This document shows, in pieces, positions 1 through 27,789 of a stretch of DNA of 37,863 nt. The position numbers were made by a program, and so were the translations under genes. This DNA is from an uncultured Helicobacter sp. (GTDB lineage Bacteria > Campylobacterota > Campylobacteria > Campylobacterales > Helicobacteraceae), in assembly GCA_947177485.1 (NCBI GenBank), contig CAMWUR010000016.1, forward strand, positions 1-37,863, in the 5' to 3' direction. The first letter of the stretch is position 1, and every line of letters begins with the position of its first letter. The notes beneath the pieces are model-generated. The model was not told the DNA's origin. It made no database searches and worked only from the letters and a program-made list of their open reading frames with translations.

Positions 1-3
1 TTT

Positions 4-70
4 GGAGATGCGATTTTAATCGCACATAAACGAGAATCGCATACTAAGTGCGACTTTAGTCGCACCTCCA
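4..70. repeat. Double-palindrome dispersed repeat (module A)
   Basis: The module starts GGAGATGCGATTTTAATCGC and ends with GTGCGACTTTAGTCGCAC followed by CTCC. Each arm is itself a small palindrome, and the two arms are roughly inverted copies of each other, so the unit can fold as one long imperfect hairpin or two short ones. Related copies lie at 240-303, 16370-16427 and 16771-16829, with a decayed one at 36365-36398. No coding capacity is visible. Confidence 0.7.
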
Positions 71-79
71 AATAGGAAT

Positions 80-493
80 ATCATTGCGAGAGGTGTTAGC
101 CTCGTGGCAATCAATAGGCAAAGAATCCTAAATGTCCTCAATTCCCCATTTGTCATTCTGAAGCCTTTAGGCTGAAGAATCTCATGTTGTCAATCATGAG
201 ATGTTTCGGCTTTGCCTCAACATGACAAATCAAATCTTTGGAGATGCGATTTCAATCGCACATCATTATGAGAATCGCATACCAGGTGCGACTAAAGTCG
301 CACTCATGATCGGATTGTGTGCGCTCGATTTCGCATCTCCATTGTCATGTTGAACGTTAGCGTTGCATCTCTTTGGATTCTTACAACATGAGATTCTTCA
401 GCCTAAAGGCTTCAGAATGACAAATGGGGAATTGAGGACATTTAGGATTCTTTGCCTATTGATTGCCACGAGGCTAACACCTCTCGCAATGAT
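80..493. repeat. Perfect 111-bp inverted repeat with 192-bp spacer
   Basis: Positions 80-190 and 383-493 are exact reverse complements over 111 bases by direct reading; the match breaks on both sides (79/494 and 191/382). Each arm contains a module built on ATTGCGAG...GGCAATC and a module with CATTCTGAAGCCTTTAGG, both of which recur near 16469-16730. The spacer holds another module (194-227) and a palindromic unit (240-303). The right arm lies 21 bases beyond the asparaginase stop codon, so a read-through transcript from that gene would carry a very long duplex. It could equally be two copies of a small mobile palindrome in opposite orientation. Confidence 0.9.
240..303. repeat. Double-palindrome dispersed repeat (module A)
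   Basis: Second copy of the unit at 4-70, in the same orientation: GGAGATGCGATTTCAATCGC at the left, GTGCGACTAAAGTCGCAC at the right, with GAGAATCGCATAC in the middle as in the first copy. It sits inside the spacer of the 111-bp inverted repeat. Confidence 0.7.
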
Positions 494-514: not shown

Positions 515-1471
515 TTAATCCCCAAACTGACAAAACGTCCGCGCGATTGCGTCATGCGTTGCGCCACTGCCAAGCAAAAGCGCAAGCAGAATCCGCGCGG
601 CAAATGGGCTAAGGTAGCCCGCGGCAATCCATTGCGGCGCTTGCAATATTGCGGGCGCGACAAACGAGCGCGCAACGCGTGAGGCGCATACAATCGTGAG
701 CTCGTCTGGTTGGTAGGCACAAAGTGCGCGTTTGAGCGCGAAGTGTACGTTCCCCGCCCCGCTCCCGGCGATGACAACGCCGCGCACGCCATCGCGCACG
801 AGTGCGTCAAGAATCACCCCAAGCCCGTTATGTGCGTATGAAAACAGAATCTCGACTCGCGCGAAGCTTTCGGGCGAACGCGCCGAAAAATGCGGCAGCA
901 CGTGCGATTGCACACGCAAAAAATGCACAGCGCCCTGCTGCACATAGCCCAAAGCGCCGTTGTGCGCGGCGAAGCAATCCGCGCCAAGCGTTGTCGCCTT
1001 GACACAATCTGTCGGCGCGAAAATGCTATCGTTCATCGTAACGAGCACACCATGCGCGCGCTCGCTGCATGCAATGCAAAGCGCATTGTAAAGGTTGCGC
1101 AATCCGTCCGCACCAAGCGCGTTGCTCGGGCGGTTCGCGCCCGTGAGCACGATGGGCTTGCGCGTTGCAACCAAAAGCTGCAACAAAAATGCGCTCTCCT
1201 CGAGCGTATCCGTGCCGTGCGTGATGACGATTCCGTCCATATCGGCAAGCGCGGCATCGACTGCGCGCACAAGCGCGAACCACAAATCCGCGTCCATGTC
1301 GCAACTATCGATGTTGGCGAGCTGTGTGGAGTAGATTTCTGCGCCCTCAAAGCGCAAGCCAGAAAGCAGCGCACCAATCGGCACGATTCCTGCGGTGTAG
1401 GATTGCATATCGGGCGCTTGCACGCCCGCAATCGTCCCGCCTGTGGCGATGAGTCCGATTTTTTTGCTCAT
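515..1471 (-). CDS. ansA: L-asparaginase
   Basis: It hydrolyses L-asparagine to aspartate and ammonia. The protein of 318 residues has the first catalytic threonine in ATGGTIAG (Thr13), the second in HGTDTLEE (Thr87 with Asp88), and the family stretches VLTGANRPSNALGADG, ILFSYAHNGLG and VIAGSGAG. It has no signal peptide, so a cytoplasmic enzyme is likely. The substrate-loop motif reads DSCDM where type II enzymes usually have GSQDM and Campylobacter enzymes DSSNM; this may alter substrate preference. I chose the ATG at 1471 because it begins MSKKIGLIATGG and overlaps the stop codon of the small upstream ORF (ATGA), which implies translational coupling; an in-frame GTG at 1504 would add 11 residues. 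It is the last gene of the minus-strand run starting near 5000. Composition is clearly more GC-rich than the genes upstream. Confidence 0.93.
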   Translation of the reverse strand: MSKKIGLIATGGTIAGVQAPDMQSYTAGIVPIGALLSGLRFEGAEIYSTQLANIDSCDMDADLWFALVRAVDAALADMDGIVITHGTDTLEESAFLLQLLVATRKPIVLTGANRPSNALGADGLRNLYNALCIACSERAHGVLVTMNDSIFAPTDCVKATTLGADCFAAHNGALGYVQQGAVHFLRVQSHVLPHFSARSPESFARVEILFSYAHNGLGVILDALVRDGVRGVVIAGSGAGNVHFALKRALCAYQPDELTIVCASRVARSFVAPAILQAPQWIAAGYLSPFAARILLALLLGSGATHDAIARTFCQFGD

Positions 1472-1575
1472 TGTCTTATGTCTGTGGCTGTTTCGAATCG
1501 ACACGAAAAATTTTCACACGTAGCAAAACGTGCCGCCAAAAAACTAACACTAAGCACCAAAAACCACTTTTTCAT
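1468..1575 (-). CDS. Small exported peptide (35 aa), coupled to ansA
   Basis: This short ORF has an excellent ribosome-binding site, AAGGAG nine bases before an ATG. The product begins MKKWFLVLSVSFLAARFA, a typical signal peptide with two lysines and a hydrophobic core, followed by about 17 residues with two cysteines (TCENFSC), ending in TDIRQ. It starts 25 bases after the C39 peptidase stop, and its TGA overlaps the asparaginase ATG. I do not recognise a family. It could be a secreted peptide belonging to the upstream exported-protein operon, or a leader peptide controlling translation of ansA. The strong Shine-Dalgarno sequence, the signal peptide and the ATGA junction together argue against chance. 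Confidence 0.62.
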   Translation of the reverse strand: MKKWFLVLSVSFLAARFATCENFSCRFETATDIRQ

Positions 1576-3015: not shown

Positions 3016-3825
3016 CTAAAATAAAAATCCAAATTGCAAATTAACAAGCTGGGTATTGTTTTTGGGCTCATAATAATTTGCACGTTCTCCAAATTCGGAA
3101 ACTAATGGAACACGGGGAGAATCTTTAACCTGCCAATGGTCGAAACAAAGACGCAAGAAGTTTTTCACATTTTGCATGTCATAGCTAACGCCAATCATTG
3201 CACGCAATCCATAATCGCCATCTTGCTTAACATTCAAATCCCTATCCCAAGGACCACGACTTGTTCGTGTATTGTGGATTCCGCGTACAAAATATTTATA
3301 GCCCACCAAATAATTTAGTGTCCACGTATTGCTCAAGCGCGAAGCACCCTCGAGCTCAATGGGAACATAAATATATTGCTGCTGTCTTGGGACAATATAA
3401 TCTCTATCTTTTGCAAACCAATGCCCGATTCCACTCTGGACATAGAGCGCATGATTTTGAATGCCTAGCGCCTGAAATGTATTGAATCCAAGCTTTGCCT
3501 CTAATGTTGTAATCGCCGCCGATGCTTGCGTAACAACCGATTCATTTTTATACGTGTCCGAGCCCGTATCGAGCGTTGAGCCTTTATATTGCCCTGAACC
3601 AACAAGCAATTGGGCGTCCAAACTTGTTTTCCATGTTTTCGCAAAATTATACCCTATTTTACCATTCAGTCCATAAAGAAATAGGTTCATGTTCATGGCT
3701 TTAGGTTCAGCATAGCGATAGTACGATAAACCAGCGCCAAGATTTGCAAATGCACCGGGATTAAGATTTTCTTCTGCTAGAGCTGCCGAAAAAAGTAGGC
3801 ATAATATCGAGATTATTCGTTTCAT
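3016..3825 (-). CDS. Outer-membrane beta-barrel protein, paralogue B
   Basis: The 269-residue protein begins MKRIISILCLLFSAALA, a signal peptide, and continues as alternating strands rich in aromatic residues, ending LVNLQFGFLF with a terminal Phe typical of a BAM signal. It resembles the protein encoded just upstream (3836-4699): NGKIGYNF against NGIRIGYVW, GSGQYKG against GQGKYTG, and near-identical endings in which glycine and hydrophobic residues alternate. I read the two as tandem duplicates. The start was placed at the ATG behind GGAGG (six-base spacing), 10 bases after the upstream stop; an earlier in-frame start would add nine residues. I do not recognise a named family, and no ligand is evident. 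It may be a second pore or a surface-exposed partner of the exported peptide. Confidence 0.72.
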   Translation of the reverse strand: MKRIISILCLLFSAALAEENLNPGAFANLGAGLSYYRYAEPKAMNMNLFLYGLNGKIGYNFAKTWKTSLDAQLLVGSGQYKGSTLDTGSDTYKNESVVTQASAAITTLEAKLGFNTFQALGIQNHALYVQSGIGHWFAKDRDYIVPRQQQYIYVPIELEGASRLSNTWTLNYLVGYKYFVRGIHNTRTSRGPWDRDLNVKQDGDYGLRAMIGVSYDMQNVKNFLRLCFDHWQVKDSPRVPLVSEFGERANYYEPKNNTQLVNLQFGFLF

Positions 3826-5023: not shown

Positions 5024-5112
5024 GAGATATTTTGTATTATATATATCAATAAAAACACTCGTGTGTTTCATTATATAACAATAGCTGCTATAAAAAGCCT
5101 AAAATAGCGCTC

Positions 5113-6378
5113 TCATGTTTGTGAATATTTCGAATCGACACGTTTGGGCATGCCCAGATTCTTGCTCGCCTGCGGTGGCACGGGCTGTGCGGGTTCGCTC
5201 GGAAGCTCGAGCGAAGCAACAAGCGGCGCGAGCGGCGCGAGCGTGAGCCCCCAATAGAGATTATGGCGCATGGTTTGCTCCTCTTTGGGTAGCGGCGGCT
5301 GTGTTTGCGCAAATGCGGCTTGCAAGGCGGTGATGAACTGCTCTTGCGTGTCGGCAATCGCGAAATTTGTGAGGTTGCGCGCGAACTCAAATCCTCGAAT
5401 CGCAAGGCTCGTTGCGACAACGGGGCGGTTGGCGACAATCGCCTCGGCGGTTTTGAGGTTGCTGCCGCCGCCGAGCGTCAGAGGCAGGAGAATCACATTT
5501 GCCTTCACGAGTAGCGCGGTCAGAACATCACGGCTCACCTCACCCAAAATCTTGATTTTTTGCTCATTGAGGAGATGCAAAATGCTGTCTTTTTCGGGCG
5601 CGTATTGGTGCAAGATTCTGCCCACAGAACCGACAACAACAATCAGCTGTTCAGGGCGGAGATAGGAGAGATTGCTCGACAACATATCCCAAAAACCAAG
5701 CGCATTGGGAACATGCGCCGAGCCAACAAACAGCGCAAAACTGCGCGAAGCGAGGGATTTTTGCAGAATCTGCTCAACATCTGCCTTATACCGCAACGAA
5801 TCCACGCCATTAGAACAAACGATAGGATTCTTTGCGCCCATCGAGGCAAGAATCTCGCTATCATGCTGCGTGCAGGCGATTGTCGCGCTTGCATGCGCGC
5901 AAACTTCAGCTTCGAGCGATTCAATCGCGGCTATCGCGTTCATGTCGCTTTGCCCAACGCTTTGGAGAATCGCCGCTTTCATTGTGTGTTCGATATTGTG
6001 CGCCGAATAAAGCAATAGCGGCATTTGATTGGGATAGAGTTTGCGCACAAACGGAAAAAGCCACGGCTGCTCAAGCAAAATCGCATCGGGCAAAAACGTA
6101 CGCAAATGCTGGGCGAGATGTTCGAAATAGGGTTCTTTGAGAGCAAGCAACGATGTTGCATAATCAGCAAGCAAGGGCGAAAAATGCAGGGCAGATAAAT
6201 CGCGCTTGTTCAAAACCACATCATCACGTGCAGTTTGCGTGTGTGTGGGCTCACAAAGCGCAAAATGGCGCACATCATGCCCCGCATAACGCAACGCATG
6301 CGCGAGAAAAAAGGCGCGAATCTGTCCACCATGACGAGGCGCAATTGTCGGATAGGTTGTGAGTTGGGCGATTTTCAC
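5113..6378 (-). CDS. Glycosyltransferase, GT-B fold (family 4 type)
   Basis: The 421-residue protein starts MKIAQLTTYPTIAPRHGGQI, with the HGG loop common at the acceptor side of GT-B enzymes. It carries the donor-binding pattern ILLPLTLGGGSNLKTAEAI followed by NRPVVAT around residues 300-325, the place of the usual EGxGxxxxEA signature. It would transfer a sugar from a nucleotide donor during surface polysaccharide or lipopolysaccharide synthesis; the neighbouring mannose-1-phosphate guanylyltransferase makes GDP-mannose a reasonable donor guess. The last ~30 residues are a proline-rich tail. The start is GTG, sharing one base with the upstream glycosyltransferase stop codon and preceded by AAGGAG. 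No hydrophobic segment is seen, so it is cytoplasmic or peripheral to the membrane. Confidence 0.85.
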   Translation of the reverse strand: MKIAQLTTYPTIAPRHGGQIRAFFLAHALRYAGHDVRHFALCEPTHTQTARDDVVLNKRDLSALHFSPLLADYATSLLALKEPYFEHLAQHLRTFLPDAILLEQPWLFPFVRKLYPNQMPLLLYSAHNIEHTMKAAILQSVGQSDMNAIAAIESLEAEVCAHASATIACTQHDSEILASMGAKNPIVCSNGVDSLRYKADVEQILQKSLASRSFALFVGSAHVPNALGFWDMLSSNLSYLRPEQLIVVVGSVGRILHQYAPEKDSILHLLNEQKIKILGEVSRDVLTALLVKANVILLPLTLGGGSNLKTAEAIVANRPVVATSLAIRGFEFARNLTNFAIADTQEQFITALQAAFAQTQPPLPKEEQTMRHNLYWGLTLAPLAPLVASLELPSEPAQPVPPQASKNLGMPKRVDSKYSQT

Positions 6379-16318: not shown

Positions 16319-16369
16319 TGCATGGCTAGGTAAATAATTTGGAATCGCGGACAGTTTGGAATCCAATTT

Positions 16370-16427
16370 GGAGGTGCGACTTTAGTCGCACTTATGTTTT
16401 AATGTGTGCGATTGAAATCGCACCTCC
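16370..16427. repeat. Double-palindrome dispersed repeat (module A)
   Basis: GGAGGTGCGACTTTAGTCGC at the left and the near-inverse GCGATTGAAATCGCACCTCC at the right form a 22-base imperfect inverted repeat with three mismatches. Each arm also folds on itself. It is the clearest of the module A copies. Confidence 0.75.
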
Positions 16428-16429
16428 AT

Positions 16430-16508
16430 TGTCATGTTGAGGCAAAGCCGAAACATCTCATGATTCTTACAACATGAGATTCTTCAGCCTAAAGACTTCA
16501 GAATGACA
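16430..16508. repeat. Dispersed repeat modules also present at 151-227 and 383-422
   Basis: Positions 16430-16463 are the reverse complement of 194-227 (TGTCATGTTGAGGCAAAGCC at its start). Positions 16469-16508 repeat 383-422 with one change (AAAGACTTC for AAAGGCTTC). The same modules therefore occur in a different order and orientation at two places about 16 kb apart. Confidence 0.8.
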
Positions 16509-16643
16509 AATAGCAAAATGTCTAGCAAGATTCCATTCTCCCAATCACAGCGCACAACGGCTATGTTTGAGCCAAAAGGCATAACATAGACGCAGCGCTG
16601 TGGTTGGGGATTCTAGAATTGATGAGTAATGGCAAATCAAGAC

Positions 16644-16829
16644 GTTATTGCGAGCTTATGCGAAGCAATCCACGACGTTGGGCAAGCAGAATTGTTGATT
16701 GCCATGCTTGCACGGCTGCTCGCAATGACGAGATGTTTCGCTTCACTCAACATGACAATTTGGAATCTTTGGAGGTGCGGTTTCAATCGCACATATTAAA
16801 TAATGCGTGCGACTTGAAGTCGCGCGCCC
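16644..16829. repeat. Mosaic of dispersed palindromic modules
   Basis: This stretch combines a unit built on ATTGCGAGC...GAAGCAATCC and GATTGCCATGC...GCTCGCAATGAC (16649-16728), a copy of the AGATGTTTCG...CAACATGACA module (16730-16757), and a module A copy (16771-16829) starting GGAGGTGCGGTTTCAATCGC. The whole gap from 16319 to 16968 holds no plausible gene. Confidence 0.65.
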
Positions 16830-24661: not shown

Positions 24662-26260
24662 GTGCATGGGAAAATCGTAACGTTTCAAGATGCCACCGGG
24701 AAAGGAGTGGTGATTAATCATTTCAAAAAACTCTTTAGCTTCAGTCGTGCAACATGGCATGACCCAAAGGCATTGCCCACCAAAGGCTTGCTTGTCGAAT
24801 ATCGAGCAGACAATGACCAAATCTTGGATATTCATGCCTCGCGCTATCAAGATTTCAGCGAAGATTCACTTGTCAGCGAAAACGATTTTTGGCACACCGA
24901 AACAGACGATGAGCTCGCTGACAAAGAAGAAAAGAAACGTTTTGCCAAAATCAACGATGTCTATAAATCGACCGATTATGCCACGCTCAACGATGTGCCC
25001 ACATCATTGCCGATTGCGCAAGCCGTCAAAAATTATTTTGTACTCGAAAACGCCGCAATTGCAATGATTGACGAGCTACCCCAAGATGTGGAACACATGC
25101 TCGATTATCTGCTACTCAAACGATTCTTGTTGCGCGCACTTGATACATTACTCTTTATGGACCGCACGCGCACGCGCGATTACTTCTTGCGCTACACCAC
25201 AACTATTACGCGGCTCGAAAATTCCTATCGAATCCTAGCACGAATCAACAATTTCAATGTCGTGCCTATTTTCGAGGAGTTTTTCTTGCGCTACCAAGTC
25301 CATTATCAAGCTCTCTGTTCGGCTATCACAAGTAGCCGCGAAGGACGCACAATGCTCGAACGTCAAAAGCAGGGTGCGGCGCGAGAAATCAAATTTTTGC
25401 AAAGACAAATCGACACAAAACAGGCAAAACCAGATGCACTCGAACGAATCAAAGAGCTCAACGACAATTTGGGCGAACAACAAAAGCAGATTGCCAAAGC
25501 CCAAACACAGATTAAAAAACTCGAAGAGCTACGTGATGATTTCTATCAACGTAACCTTGAGTCCTTTAAGCTTGTGCTCAACGCTTCTTATGAACGGCTT
25601 TTGCGCAAGCTCAAAAATGGGCTCAACATCTCTTCGACTTTGCTTGATGATGAGATATGGAAACTCTCTGTAAACTCAAGCTCAATTAAGGTTCAATTCT
25701 TTCGCAACGGCGGTGAAGAAAATATCTGTACATATAGTTTTGCCAAATTCTATTTGCGCCATCTTGATACCAAAATGTTGCAAGGCACAGACCATGAGCT
25801 CGAGAGTTACTGCAAGAAGATTCGTAAAACTTCACAAAAATATTTCTTGATTGTTTCCGATAATCTTGACTTTATTACAAATGTTAAGTTGCAGATTCTG
25901 ACGCAAGCAAAATTTAATCAATGCAAACAAGCCGAAAAAGTCATCGCGCTACATAGCCTTTTGCGCGATATTGCATTCACACAAATCATCATTGACAAAA
26001 ACACAAAATGGCTTTCGACAAACGAGATTATTGCGACTATCGCTGAATTTCCAAAAAACAAAAATACAGACATTCAAGTTACATTCATGCATGACAGGAA
26101 CTTCTTTCCGCTCAAAGTCGAATCGGACAACAACGAAATCACATTCAACCTGCCTACAACAGTGCTTGCAAAAGCCGAAGAGCTTTGGGAGCAGATTCCA
26201 GAAGGCGAGCATGAAATCTCGGATTTTTCGCAACCGACAGATGATTCAAGCAATTCTTAA
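24662..26260 (+). CDS. Tandem paralogue 1: OB-like start, coiled coil, receiver-like end
   Basis: The 532-residue cytoplasmic protein starts MHGKIVTFQDATGKGVVINH, with KLFSF and GLLVEYRAD following, a pattern that recalls cold-shock OB-fold domains (first ~50 residues). A helical middle follows with a coiled coil (about 230-310, many Gln, Lys, Glu), and then, near 390-490, a segment with YFLIVSDNLDF and IIIDK that looks like a degenerate response-regulator receiver. I chose the GTG at 24662 since it matches the start of the next gene (MHGKIV) and has AAGGA seven bases upstream; TTG at 24641 is less likely. The function is unknown. The neighbouring gene is a clear duplicate (FWHTxxDxEL, LKNGL, SLLRD). 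Confidence 0.82.
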   Translation: MHGKIVTFQDATGKGVVINHFKKLFSFSRATWHDPKALPTKGLLVEYRADNDQILDIHASRYQDFSEDSLVSENDFWHTETDDELADKEEKKRFAKINDVYKSTDYATLNDVPTSLPIAQAVKNYFVLENAAIAMIDELPQDVEHMLDYLLLKRFLLRALDTLLFMDRTRTRDYFLRYTTTITRLENSYRILARINNFNVVPIFEEFFLRYQVHYQALCSAITSSREGRTMLERQKQGAAREIKFLQRQIDTKQAKPDALERIKELNDNLGEQQKQIAKAQTQIKKLEELRDDFYQRNLESFKLVLNASYERLLRKLKNGLNISSTLLDDEIWKLSVNSSSIKVQFFRNGGEENICTYSFAKFYLRHLDTKMLQGTDHELESYCKKIRKTSQKYFLIVSDNLDFITNVKLQILTQAKFNQCKQAEKVIALHSLLRDIAFTQIIIDKNTKWLSTNEIIATIAEFPKNKNTDIQVTFMHDRNFFPLKVESDNNEITFNLPTTVLAKAEELWEQIPEGEHEISDFSQPTDDSSNS

Positions 26261-26271
26261 GATTTGTGAGA

Positions 26272-26277
26272 TATAAT
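26272..26277 (+). promoter_or_regulatory. -10 box before tandem paralogue 2
   Basis: A perfect TATAAT sits in the 62-base gap between the two paralogues, about 45 bases before the next ATG, with no strong -35 element. It suggests that the second copy has its own promoter. Confidence 0.4.
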
Positions 26278-26322
26278 GTACATTCCGAAATTTTTTATAT
26301 ATAAAATTGGAACGAGGGCAAT

Positions 26323-27789
26323 ATGCACGGCAAAATCGTAAGCTATCAAGGTTCAACGGGTAGGGGCGTCATCACAACATTAGCAAAAAAGCTCTTTGAA
26401 TTTAACAAAGCTGCATGGCATGATAAACGCGTGATTCCAGCAATTGGCATGTTTGTTGAATTTCGTGCTGAAACCAGCTTCGTGAGCGATGCGCATGCCT
26501 CAAAATTCCAAATCTTTGACGAACGCACAGTGGTCAGCGAATATGACTTTTGGCATACTGACAGCGATGAAGAGCTCGAGACACTCGAGGAGACGAAAAA
26601 ATTTGAATACGTCGAAAGTATTTATAAAAAGACGGATTATAACACTATCGAAGAAATTATCTCACTCATGACTGTTGCTGACGCTGTTAAGGGATATTTT
26701 TTCGCCGAGAGTTCGTCCGTTGCAGCGATTGATGACCTTGCGCATGACGACCACATGATTATCATCGACTATATCCAACTCAAACGGTTTATCAACAAAG
26801 CCCTAGAAACATTGCTTTTTTCCGACAAAACCATACAGCGCGATAAATTCTCGGAATTTTTTGCCATTCTCACACGACTTGAAAATTCTTACGAATCAAT
26901 GGTCAAATACCAGAATCTCAATATCGAGAACATCTTCGAGCAGTCGTTTATCCGATTTCAATTCCACTACCAGGCGTTTTGCTCGGCGATTGAAAACCAC
27001 AAAGACCGCCTTACACTTGCAAAAAAGCAAGAAAAGGGTTACGCATTTCAGGTGAACACATTGCTCAATCGCATTCAAAGCAATATGGGCAATGTCGAGG
27101 CGAATAAAGAAAAACTCGCAAAAATTCAAGTGCAATTGCAAGCAAGTATCAAAGAACGTGAGCGCGTGGGCGAGAATCTTGCGCGGCTTGAAGCGATTCG
27201 CAAGAATTTCTACGACAACCACCTCACTGCATTCCAAGTGATTTTCCAAACAGCGTTCAATCGATTCTTCAAGAAAATCAAAAATGGGCTTGACCATTGC
27301 GGTTCGCTACTCGATGACCAGATTTGGCGCTTGGCGGCAAACTCTAACTCGCTGAAGAATCACTTCAAAGGTGGTGGCGAAGAGAACTATTGTGCTGTGA
27401 ACTTCGCATTGCAATATCTCAATCGACTCAACAAGAGTATGTTGCATAATGCCGACCAAGACTTATGGCACTATTGCAACGCATTCCAAAAGCAGCAGCG
27501 CACATACGCGTTGATTGTCTCAAACAATATCGACCTCACGACTGAAGTCAAAGTGAATATCCTCGCGCGTAAGAAATACCTGATTGTCAAGCATGCACCC
27601 AAGAAAATCAACCTGCAAAGCCTATTGCGTGATTTCAACTTCACAACAATCTATATCGACAAAGACCTCGATTGGGCAAGTAACGAAGATGTACTCAAGG
27701 AGATTCAGGGCTTCAAAAACAATGCGAACGCAAAAATCGAAGAGATTGATGCCGCTGTTGTACTCAAAAATGTACGGAGAGTACCATAA
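26323..27789 (+). CDS. Tandem paralogue 2: OB-like start, coiled coil, receiver-like end
   Basis: The 488-residue protein has the same plan as the gene before it: MHGKIVSYQGSTGRGVI and GMFVEFRAE at the start (possible OB fold), the conserved EYDFWHTDSDEEL, a helical middle with a coiled coil (about 230-300), KKIKNGLDHCGSLLDDQIW, and YALIVSNNIDL with TIYIDKD in the receiver-like end. It lacks the extra C-terminal ~40 residues of paralogue 1. The ATG follows GAGGG. Its stop overlaps the Sel1 gene start by one base (TAATG), so the two are co-translated. I do not know a named family; nucleic-acid binding is a guess from the N-terminus only. Confidence 0.82.
   Translation: MHGKIVSYQGSTGRGVITTLAKKLFEFNKAAWHDKRVIPAIGMFVEFRAETSFVSDAHASKFQIFDERTVVSEYDFWHTDSDEELETLEETKKFEYVESIYKKTDYNTIEEIISLMTVADAVKGYFFAESSSVAAIDDLAHDDHMIIIDYIQLKRFINKALETLLFSDKTIQRDKFSEFFAILTRLENSYESMVKYQNLNIENIFEQSFIRFQFHYQAFCSAIENHKDRLTLAKKQEKGYAFQVNTLLNRIQSNMGNVEANKEKLAKIQVQLQASIKERERVGENLARLEAIRKNFYDNHLTAFQVIFQTAFNRFFKKIKNGLDHCGSLLDDQIWRLAANSNSLKNHFKGGGEENYCAVNFALQYLNRLNKSMLHNADQDLWHYCNAFQKQQRTYALIVSNNIDLTTEVKVNILARKKYLIVKHAPKKINLQSLLRDFNFTTIYIDKDLDWASNEDVLKEIQGFKNNANAKIEEIDAAVVLKNVRRVP

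What the first reader, a model, noticed from the sequence alone, without database searches (positions are those of the whole stretch)
80..493. Perfect 111-bp inverted repeat
Two exact arms 192 bp apart, with no mismatch, imply recent duplication or gene conversion. Placed just after ansA, the transcript could form a duplex long enough for RNase III. The arms are built from modules dispersed elsewhere in the window, so it may be a non-autonomous mobile element.
Basis: seen in the sequence. Interest (0 to 1): 0.6.

Follow-up and report, generated by a model that had tools for sequence, protein, structure and literature searches.

The report
Two facing hairpin-repeat clusters beside ansA
The perfect inverted repeat is real in the assembled sequence, but it is two copies of an ordinary, highly repeated family of small bacterial hairpin repeats (REP/BIME type) lying head to head after the ansA gene of an unnamed Helicobacter, at a contig edge where the draft assembly cannot fully prove the arrangement.

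Summary
The window is one whole contig of a draft Helicobacter genome, and the repeat lies at its start. The arms are not ends of one element; no second copy of the 414-bp structure exists in the genome. It is built from four kinds of small hairpin repeat with about 490 pattern matches genome-wide: three with a (C/T)GTC tag (A, C, D/Q), like the CGTC-tagged REPs of the literature, and one with a GGAG tag (E). E also flanks the genome's only RAYT-like transposase gene, so E looks like that enzyme's REP. Two composites, A-B-C-D-E and A-B-C-Q-E, face each other around a shared E hairpin. Contig-end overlaps show the assembler used k=55, shorter than the arms, so linkage and spacer orientation rest on read pairs. 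Most likely: a BIME-like cluster made by recombination or template switching between inverted REP composites, acting (if transcribed) as a 3' hairpin on ansA mRNA. Ordinary kind; the two-family composite with an unusual RAYT is mildly interesting.

The parts
1..69 (.). E dimer: two GGAG-tagged hairpins facing each other (4-25 +, 48-69 -); bases 1-55 are shared exactly with the start of contig C20 (assembly branch point)
80..113 (+). A unit, distal copy: YGTC-type REP hairpin TCATTGCGAG-AGGTGTTAGCCT-CGTGGCAATC; outer part of left arm. The same variant occurs at C27:81-112 and C78:50-81, there too next to an E dimer
114..148 (+). B linker, the rarest module; best copies elsewhere 93% over 28 nt (C41) and 90% over 20 nt (C26)
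149..190 (+). C unit: TGTC-tagged REP hairpin GTCATTCTGAAGCC-TTTA-GGCTGAAGAATCTC; inner part of left arm; 81 C-type pattern matches in the genome, many with the identical 32-mer
192..229 (-). D unit: TGTC-tagged REP hairpin (GTCATGTTGAGGCAAAGCCGAAACATCTC on the - strand); 111 D/Q-type matches in the genome
237..303 (.). E units in the spacer (240-261 GGAG-tagged; 282-303 central hairpin without intact tag) that both half-composites share
316..341 (-). Degenerate E half belonging to the right-hand composite (TGGAGATGCGAAATCGAGCGCACA on the - strand)
342..371 (+). Q unit: D-type REP with a different stem (GTCATGTTGAACG-TTAG-CGTTGCATCTC); breaks the perfect symmetry with D
383..424 (-). C unit, right arm
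425..459 (-). B linker, right arm
460..493 (-). A unit, right arm, 22 bp downstream of the ansA stop; relatives also carry an A-type unit as the first module after ansA, with other stems
515..1504 (-). ansA, asparaginase (PF00710, PF17763); the inverted repeat lies in its 3' flank
16362..16800 (.). Second REP array in the window: E E D C, then A D E, which holds the same kinds of module as the inverted repeat

Best explanation
The structure is a BIME-like cluster of small repetitive hairpins in the 3' flank of ansA. Two composite clusters, A-B-C-D-E on the left and A-B-C-Q-E on the right, lie in opposite orientation and meet at a shared central E hairpin. The GGAG-tagged E hairpins are probably the REP substrate of the single RAYT-type (HUH, tyrosine) transposase of this genome; the (C/T)GTC-tagged A, C, D and Q hairpins are orphan REPs of the CGTC kind that are fused to E in repeated composites. 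Once two such composites faced each other, their shared C hairpins would let a stalled nascent strand switch to the other arm (or let inverted homologous recombination act) and copy A-B from one arm to the other. That would leave perfect outer arms around an imperfect centre. In RNA the whole region would fold into one very long hairpin directly after ansA, which would be expected to end or stabilise the ansA transcript or be cut by RNase III. Shown: modules, copy numbers, composites, E units around the RAYT gene, symmetry, fold. Inferred: mobility of E, the copying step, any effect on ansA.
For: Module make-up and copy number: A 100, C 81, D/Q 111, E 196 (up to 2 mismatches, a few possibly counted on both strands) matches in 2.04 Mb, reversed control patterns 0. 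Stems vary with compensation: E occurs as GTGCGACT/AGTCGCAC, GTGCGATT/AATCGCAC, GTGCGGTT/AACCGCAC, GTGCGGCT/AGCCGCAC. Four E units lie around the RAYT-like gene at C13:28848-29372, two of them within about 20 bp of its ends; that protein matches NCBIfam REP_Tyr_transpos at 63 bits. Composites: 31 places in the sequence read have a D-type unit joined to E by one of two fixed linkers (32-34-nt class and 23-24-nt class), and the two halves of the inverted repeat carry one linker class each; C-D-E recurs, e.g. 98% over 155 nt at C44. Left and right halves align as A-B-C identical, then D versus Q and E versus E diverged. Template switching turns quasipalindromes into perfect ones in E. coli (PMC7202029).
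Against: No event was observed; arm identity could also be old and due to slow change, or partly an assembly effect, since arms are longer than k=55. The RAYT scores below NCBIfam's cut-off of 80, and the E tag is GGAG, not the canonical GT[AG]G. Why exchange stopped exactly at the C/D border is explained only by the loss of homology there. No expression data for ansA.
Confidence: 0.65

Rival explanations
1. Assembly artefact: the distal arm (or its linkage, or the orientation of the spacer) is wrong, because the de Bruijn graph at k=55 cannot resolve a 111-bp inverted repeat next to a C-D repeat present at many loci.
For: Maximum exact contig-end overlap is 55 at 27 ends, the window start included. 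55-mers starting at 80-136 are shared by both arms and those starting at 148-189 occur in up to about seven other contexts. 43 of 122 contig ends carry REP units against 2 of 92 interior tiles of the same size, so REP arrays are where this assembly breaks. In two related MAGs the contigs also end just after ansA. The arm length equals 2k+1, a coincidence I could not explain.
Against: 55-mers across the left flank/A, ansA flank/A, B-C-D and B-C-Q junctions are each unique, so reads must contain both entries to and both exits from the A-B-C block; a single block cannot give that unless the population is mixed. Picking by error the one C-D flank that carries the same A-B-C would be a coincidence.
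Confidence: 0.2
2. The 414-bp structure is one non-autonomous mobile element with 111-bp terminal inverted repeats (MITE-like).
For: Long inverted ends around a short non-coding core, in an intergenic place.
Against: No second copy in the genome and no match in plasmids. The core is made of the same REP modules as the arms. The arms exist in pieces elsewhere. No clear target repeat flanks it: 60-79 and 494-513 share only a short ATATC-like match by eye.
Confidence: 0.03
3. Invertible switch: recombination between the arms flips the 192-bp spacer and changes ansA or neighbour expression.
For: 111-bp identical arms are long enough for homologous recombination, and assembly k-mers cannot tell the two orientations apart.
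Against: The spacer holds only REP hairpins; the scan finds one weak promoter-like match in 1-700, as expected by chance, and it lies outside the spacer. Flipping would leave two similar hairpins in the transcript.
Confidence: 0.05
4. The two A-B-C blocks arrived independently as copies of an identical source block, with no exchange between arms.
For: C is identical at many loci, and the A variant occurs at two further loci.
Against: No other locus holds A-B-C together at better than 87% over 82 nt, so an identical source is not seen.
Confidence: 0.07

Closest known systems
REP/BIME elements of Enterobacteria and Pseudomonas (GTAG-tagged REPs with RAYT/TnpA-REP)
   Same: Small intergenic hairpins with a 5' tag, in inverted pairs and clusters, about 200 E copies, an HUH tyrosine transposase gene flanked by them (REPtron).
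   Different: Tag is GGAG rather than GT[AG]G; the RAYT is distant (63 bits, below NCBIfam cut-off) and no close relative of it was found in the 121 family genomes searched.
CGTC-tagged REPs (Di Nocera et al. 2013, PMC3733652), including dRS3 of Neisseria and RPE-4/RPE-6 of Rickettsia
   Same: Tag CGTC/TGTC, stem starting with A-T and T-A, loop of about 4, many copies, inverted pairs, no transposase gene of their own.
   Different: Stem interrupted by facing GA/GA positions; tail CTC in C and D; joined in fixed composites to a RAYT-linked REP family. The paper does not mention Helicobacter.
Mosaic intergenic arrays of Neisseria (dRS3 clusters interleaved with other repeats; cited in PMC3733652)
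   Same: Several repeat families mixed in one intergenic array.
   Different: Here one member family is linked to a RAYT gene and a perfect long inverted arrangement has formed.
Quasipalindrome correction by template switching (E. coli lacZ and thyA; PMC7202029)
   Same: Imperfect inverted repeats become perfect over part of their length.
   Different: Tract of up to 111 bp, far longer than the 18-bp reporter quasipalindromes; only inferred here.

Membership tests
REP (GTAG superfamily) with RAYT, for module E | High-copy small palindrome, mostly intergenic | tested here: met
   196 matches with up to 2 mismatches, control 0; in the window all E units lie between genes; intergenic position not counted genome-wide
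REP (GTAG superfamily) with RAYT, for module E | 5' tetranucleotide GT[AG]G at the foot of the hairpin | tested here: not met
   Tag is GGAG; one base off GTAG, so E is filed as REP-like, not as a GTAG REP
REP (GTAG superfamily) with RAYT, for module E | RAYT gene flanked by the repeat | tested here: met
   E at L074 1110-1135, 1281-1307 and 1862-1886 around ORF 1318-1845, plus 1050-1071
REP (GTAG superfamily) with RAYT, for module E | Transposase has HUH motif and a Y followed four residues on by N | tested here: met
   HLH in MPNHLHILF and YIAHN in the 175-aa ORF, read by eye; Pfam Y1_Tnp 43.7 bits; motif spacing from PMC6006769, its placement here from own knowledge
REP (GTAG superfamily) with RAYT, for module E | Enzyme cuts the repeat | not testable with these tools
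   needs biochemistry
CGTC-tagged REPs, for modules A, C, D, Q | Tag CGTC, TGTC or CCTC | tested here: met
   GTCATTCTGA and GTCATGTTGA patterns: 81 and 111 matches; A copies read elsewhere begin GTCATTGCGAG, but both arms here have ATCATT
CGTC-tagged REPs, for modules A, C, D, Q | Stem of 8-9 bp with A-T and T-A as first two pairs, loop 4-5 | tested here: inconclusive
   C: ATTCT..AGAAT and AGCC..GGCT around TTTA; stems vary with compensation. Met only if the GA/GA interruption in the stem is allowed
CGTC-tagged REPs, for modules A, C, D, Q | Tail close to CCA | tested here: inconclusive
   CTC in C and D; CCA after some A copies, e.g. GCAATCCA at C44
CGTC-tagged REPs, for modules A, C, D, Q | No dedicated transposase gene | tested here: inconclusive
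   The only Y1_Tnp gene is flanked by E, none of A/C/D near it; other transposase families not scanned
MITE / element with 111-bp terminal inverted repeats | Several dispersed copies of the whole unit | tested here: not met
   Only the self-match covers 80-493
Rfam RNA family | Match above gathering score | tested here: not met
   0 matches in the window

The most novel reading that the evidence does not exclude
A RAYT with an unusual GGAG-tagged REP moves orphan CGTC-type REPs as passengers: A-B-C-D sits between two E dimers here, and D is fused to E by fixed linkers at 31 places, so this genome would help answer the open question of what mobilises CGTC REPs.
Probability: 0.13. Interest if true: 0.55.

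Novelty: new member of a known kind. Interest (0 to 1): 0.27.

Why it matters
It turns a striking single feature into a clear case of known biology (REP/BIME clusters) and shows that this Helicobacter lineage carries a massive REP expansion: E has 196, 99 and 74 matches in three genomes (two of them only 58-61% complete) and 0-1 in the two complete sister genomes. The fused two-family composites in a genome with a lone RAYT gene make a testable case for how transposase-less CGTC REPs spread. It also warns that perfect repeats at contig edges must be read against the assembler's k.

Tried and rejected
Rfam: nothing. Plasmids: nothing. A REP paper on Helicobacter: none useful found. Element with 111-bp ends: rejected (no second copy). 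Terminator scan: no intrinsic terminator inside the inverted repeat on the ansA strand; the two hits lie inside ansA and in the E dimer at 35-55. RAYT relatives in 121 family genomes: only one weak, broken hit elsewhere, so I could not test whether GGAG repeats follow the enzyme in other species. Direction of copying between arms: A is in its usual context (after an E dimer) in the left arm (C27, C78), while relatives have an A unit at the place of the right arm but with other stems; I lean to left-to-right copying, weakly. Bulge collapse by the assembler as the cause of perfect identity: with 111-bp arms and k=55 it could hide only a difference at the very middle, so it was set aside.

Full report
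What was checked. The inverted repeat is exactly as described: 80-190 and 383-493, 111 nt, no mismatch, 192 nt apart. ansA is the ORF at 515-1504 on the minus strand, an asparaginase by Pfam, so the repeat starts 22 bp beyond its stop. The window is the complete contig C16 of a 97-contig, 2.04-Mb draft, and the nearest named relatives by ansA are uncultured Helicobacter MAGs. The repeat is therefore at a contig edge.

What it is made of. Hits of the first 515 bases to the rest of the genome fall into blocks that correspond to four hairpin types. A is TCATTGCGAG..GCAATC, C is GTCATTCTGA..GAATCTC, D (and its stem variant Q) is GTCATGTTGA..ATCTC, and E is GGAG-(G/A)TGCG(A/G)(C/T)TNNA..CGCAC. Pattern counts in the genome are 100, 81, 111 and 196 (E with up to two mismatches), with zero for the reversed control patterns. 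Stems change with compensation, for instance GCGACT/AGTCGC, GCGATT/AATCGC, GCGGTT/AACCGC and GCGGCT/AGCCGC in E, and AGCC/GGCT against ACTCGC/GCGAGT in C. B, between A and C, is the rarest part.

Layout. Reading the plus strand: E E (1-69), A+ B+ C+ (left arm), D-, E+, central E, E-, Q+, then C- B- A- (right arm), then ansA. The two halves align as identical A-B-C followed by diverged D/Q and E; the whole of 80-493 matches its own reverse complement at 79%. Thirty-one places in the sequence that I read join a D-type unit to E by one of two fixed linkers, and the left half carries the long linker, the right half the short one. So this is two related composites facing each other, not a single element with long ends; the full unit occurs once.

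Link to a transposase. The genome has one Y1_Tnp gene, a 175-codon ORF with HLH and YIAHN motifs, best described by NCBIfam REP_Tyr_transpos, though at 63 bits it is under that model's cut-off of 80. Four E units lie around it, two of them within about 20 bp of its start and stop; no A, C or D unit is near. E is abundant in three genomes of the genus and absent (0-1) in two complete ones. This supports E as the REP of that RAYT. A, C and D match the CGTC-tagged superfamily (tag CGTC or TGTC, A-T and T-A as first pairs), which has no known transposase (PMC3733652).

Is it real? I compared 122 ends of 61 contigs, the window included. Exact overlap of an end with another contig end piles up at 55 and never exceeds it: the assembler's k was very probably 55. 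Within the window, 55-mers starting at 80-136 occur in both arms, those at 148-189 recur in up to about seven other contexts, and all those across the outer and inner arm junctions are unique. Hence the A-B-C block has two entries and two exits in the reads, which argues for two copies, but the linkage and the spacer orientation were chosen from read pairs. Contig ends carry REP units far more often (43 of 122) than interior tiles of the window (2 of 92). In the two related MAGs the contig also stops soon after ansA, inside REPs. I put the chance of a material assembly error here at about one in five.

How it probably arose and works. C is identical in many places, so C in both arms is not informative. 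A-B is: the best copy of the block elsewhere is 87% over 82 nt. Local copying between facing arms, by nascent-strand template switching or inverted recombination, is the simplest account; such correction of quasipalindromes is known in E. coli (PMC7202029). That step is inferred. As RNA the region folds into one hairpin (z = -30) behind ansA; a role in transcript ending, stability or RNase III cutting follows from general knowledge of 3' REPs and is untested.

Comparison and verdict. It works like a BIME cluster and is of the REP kind in structure, copy number, pairing and RAYT association (for E), with a tag (GGAG) that fails the canonical GT[AG]G test. The point of some interest is the fusion of an orphan CGTC-type family to a RAYT-linked family.

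Noticed in passing
L111 5113-5377 and 6242-6506 (own genome C5:25112-25376 and 26241-26505): A perfect 265-bp inverted repeat, 864 bp apart, in a contig interior: the identical 5' ends of two divergent ORFs around a REP array; suggests gene conversion or recombination between paralogues.
   Followed up: partly
L074 1318-1845 (own genome C13:28848-29372): A lone RAYT-like gene; only one weak, broken relative in 121 genomes of the family.
   Followed up: partly
own genome C71:4566-5284 and C6:24097-24537: REP units repeat in tandem with periods of 318 and 306 bp, i.e. tandem BIME-like arrays.
   Followed up: no
window 1474-1505 and 5111-5142: A 32-nt direct repeat, 84% identical, at or near the start of ansA and the end of the ORF at 5.1 kb; could be a shared site or related ends left by a rearrangement.
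   Followed up: no
own genome C91:31-86 and 3049-3104: A 56-bp perfect inverted repeat at both ends of a 3.16-kb contig, C-D composites facing each other.
   Followed up: no
window 16362-16800: Second REP array (E E D C .. A D E) between genes of the window.
   Followed up: partly
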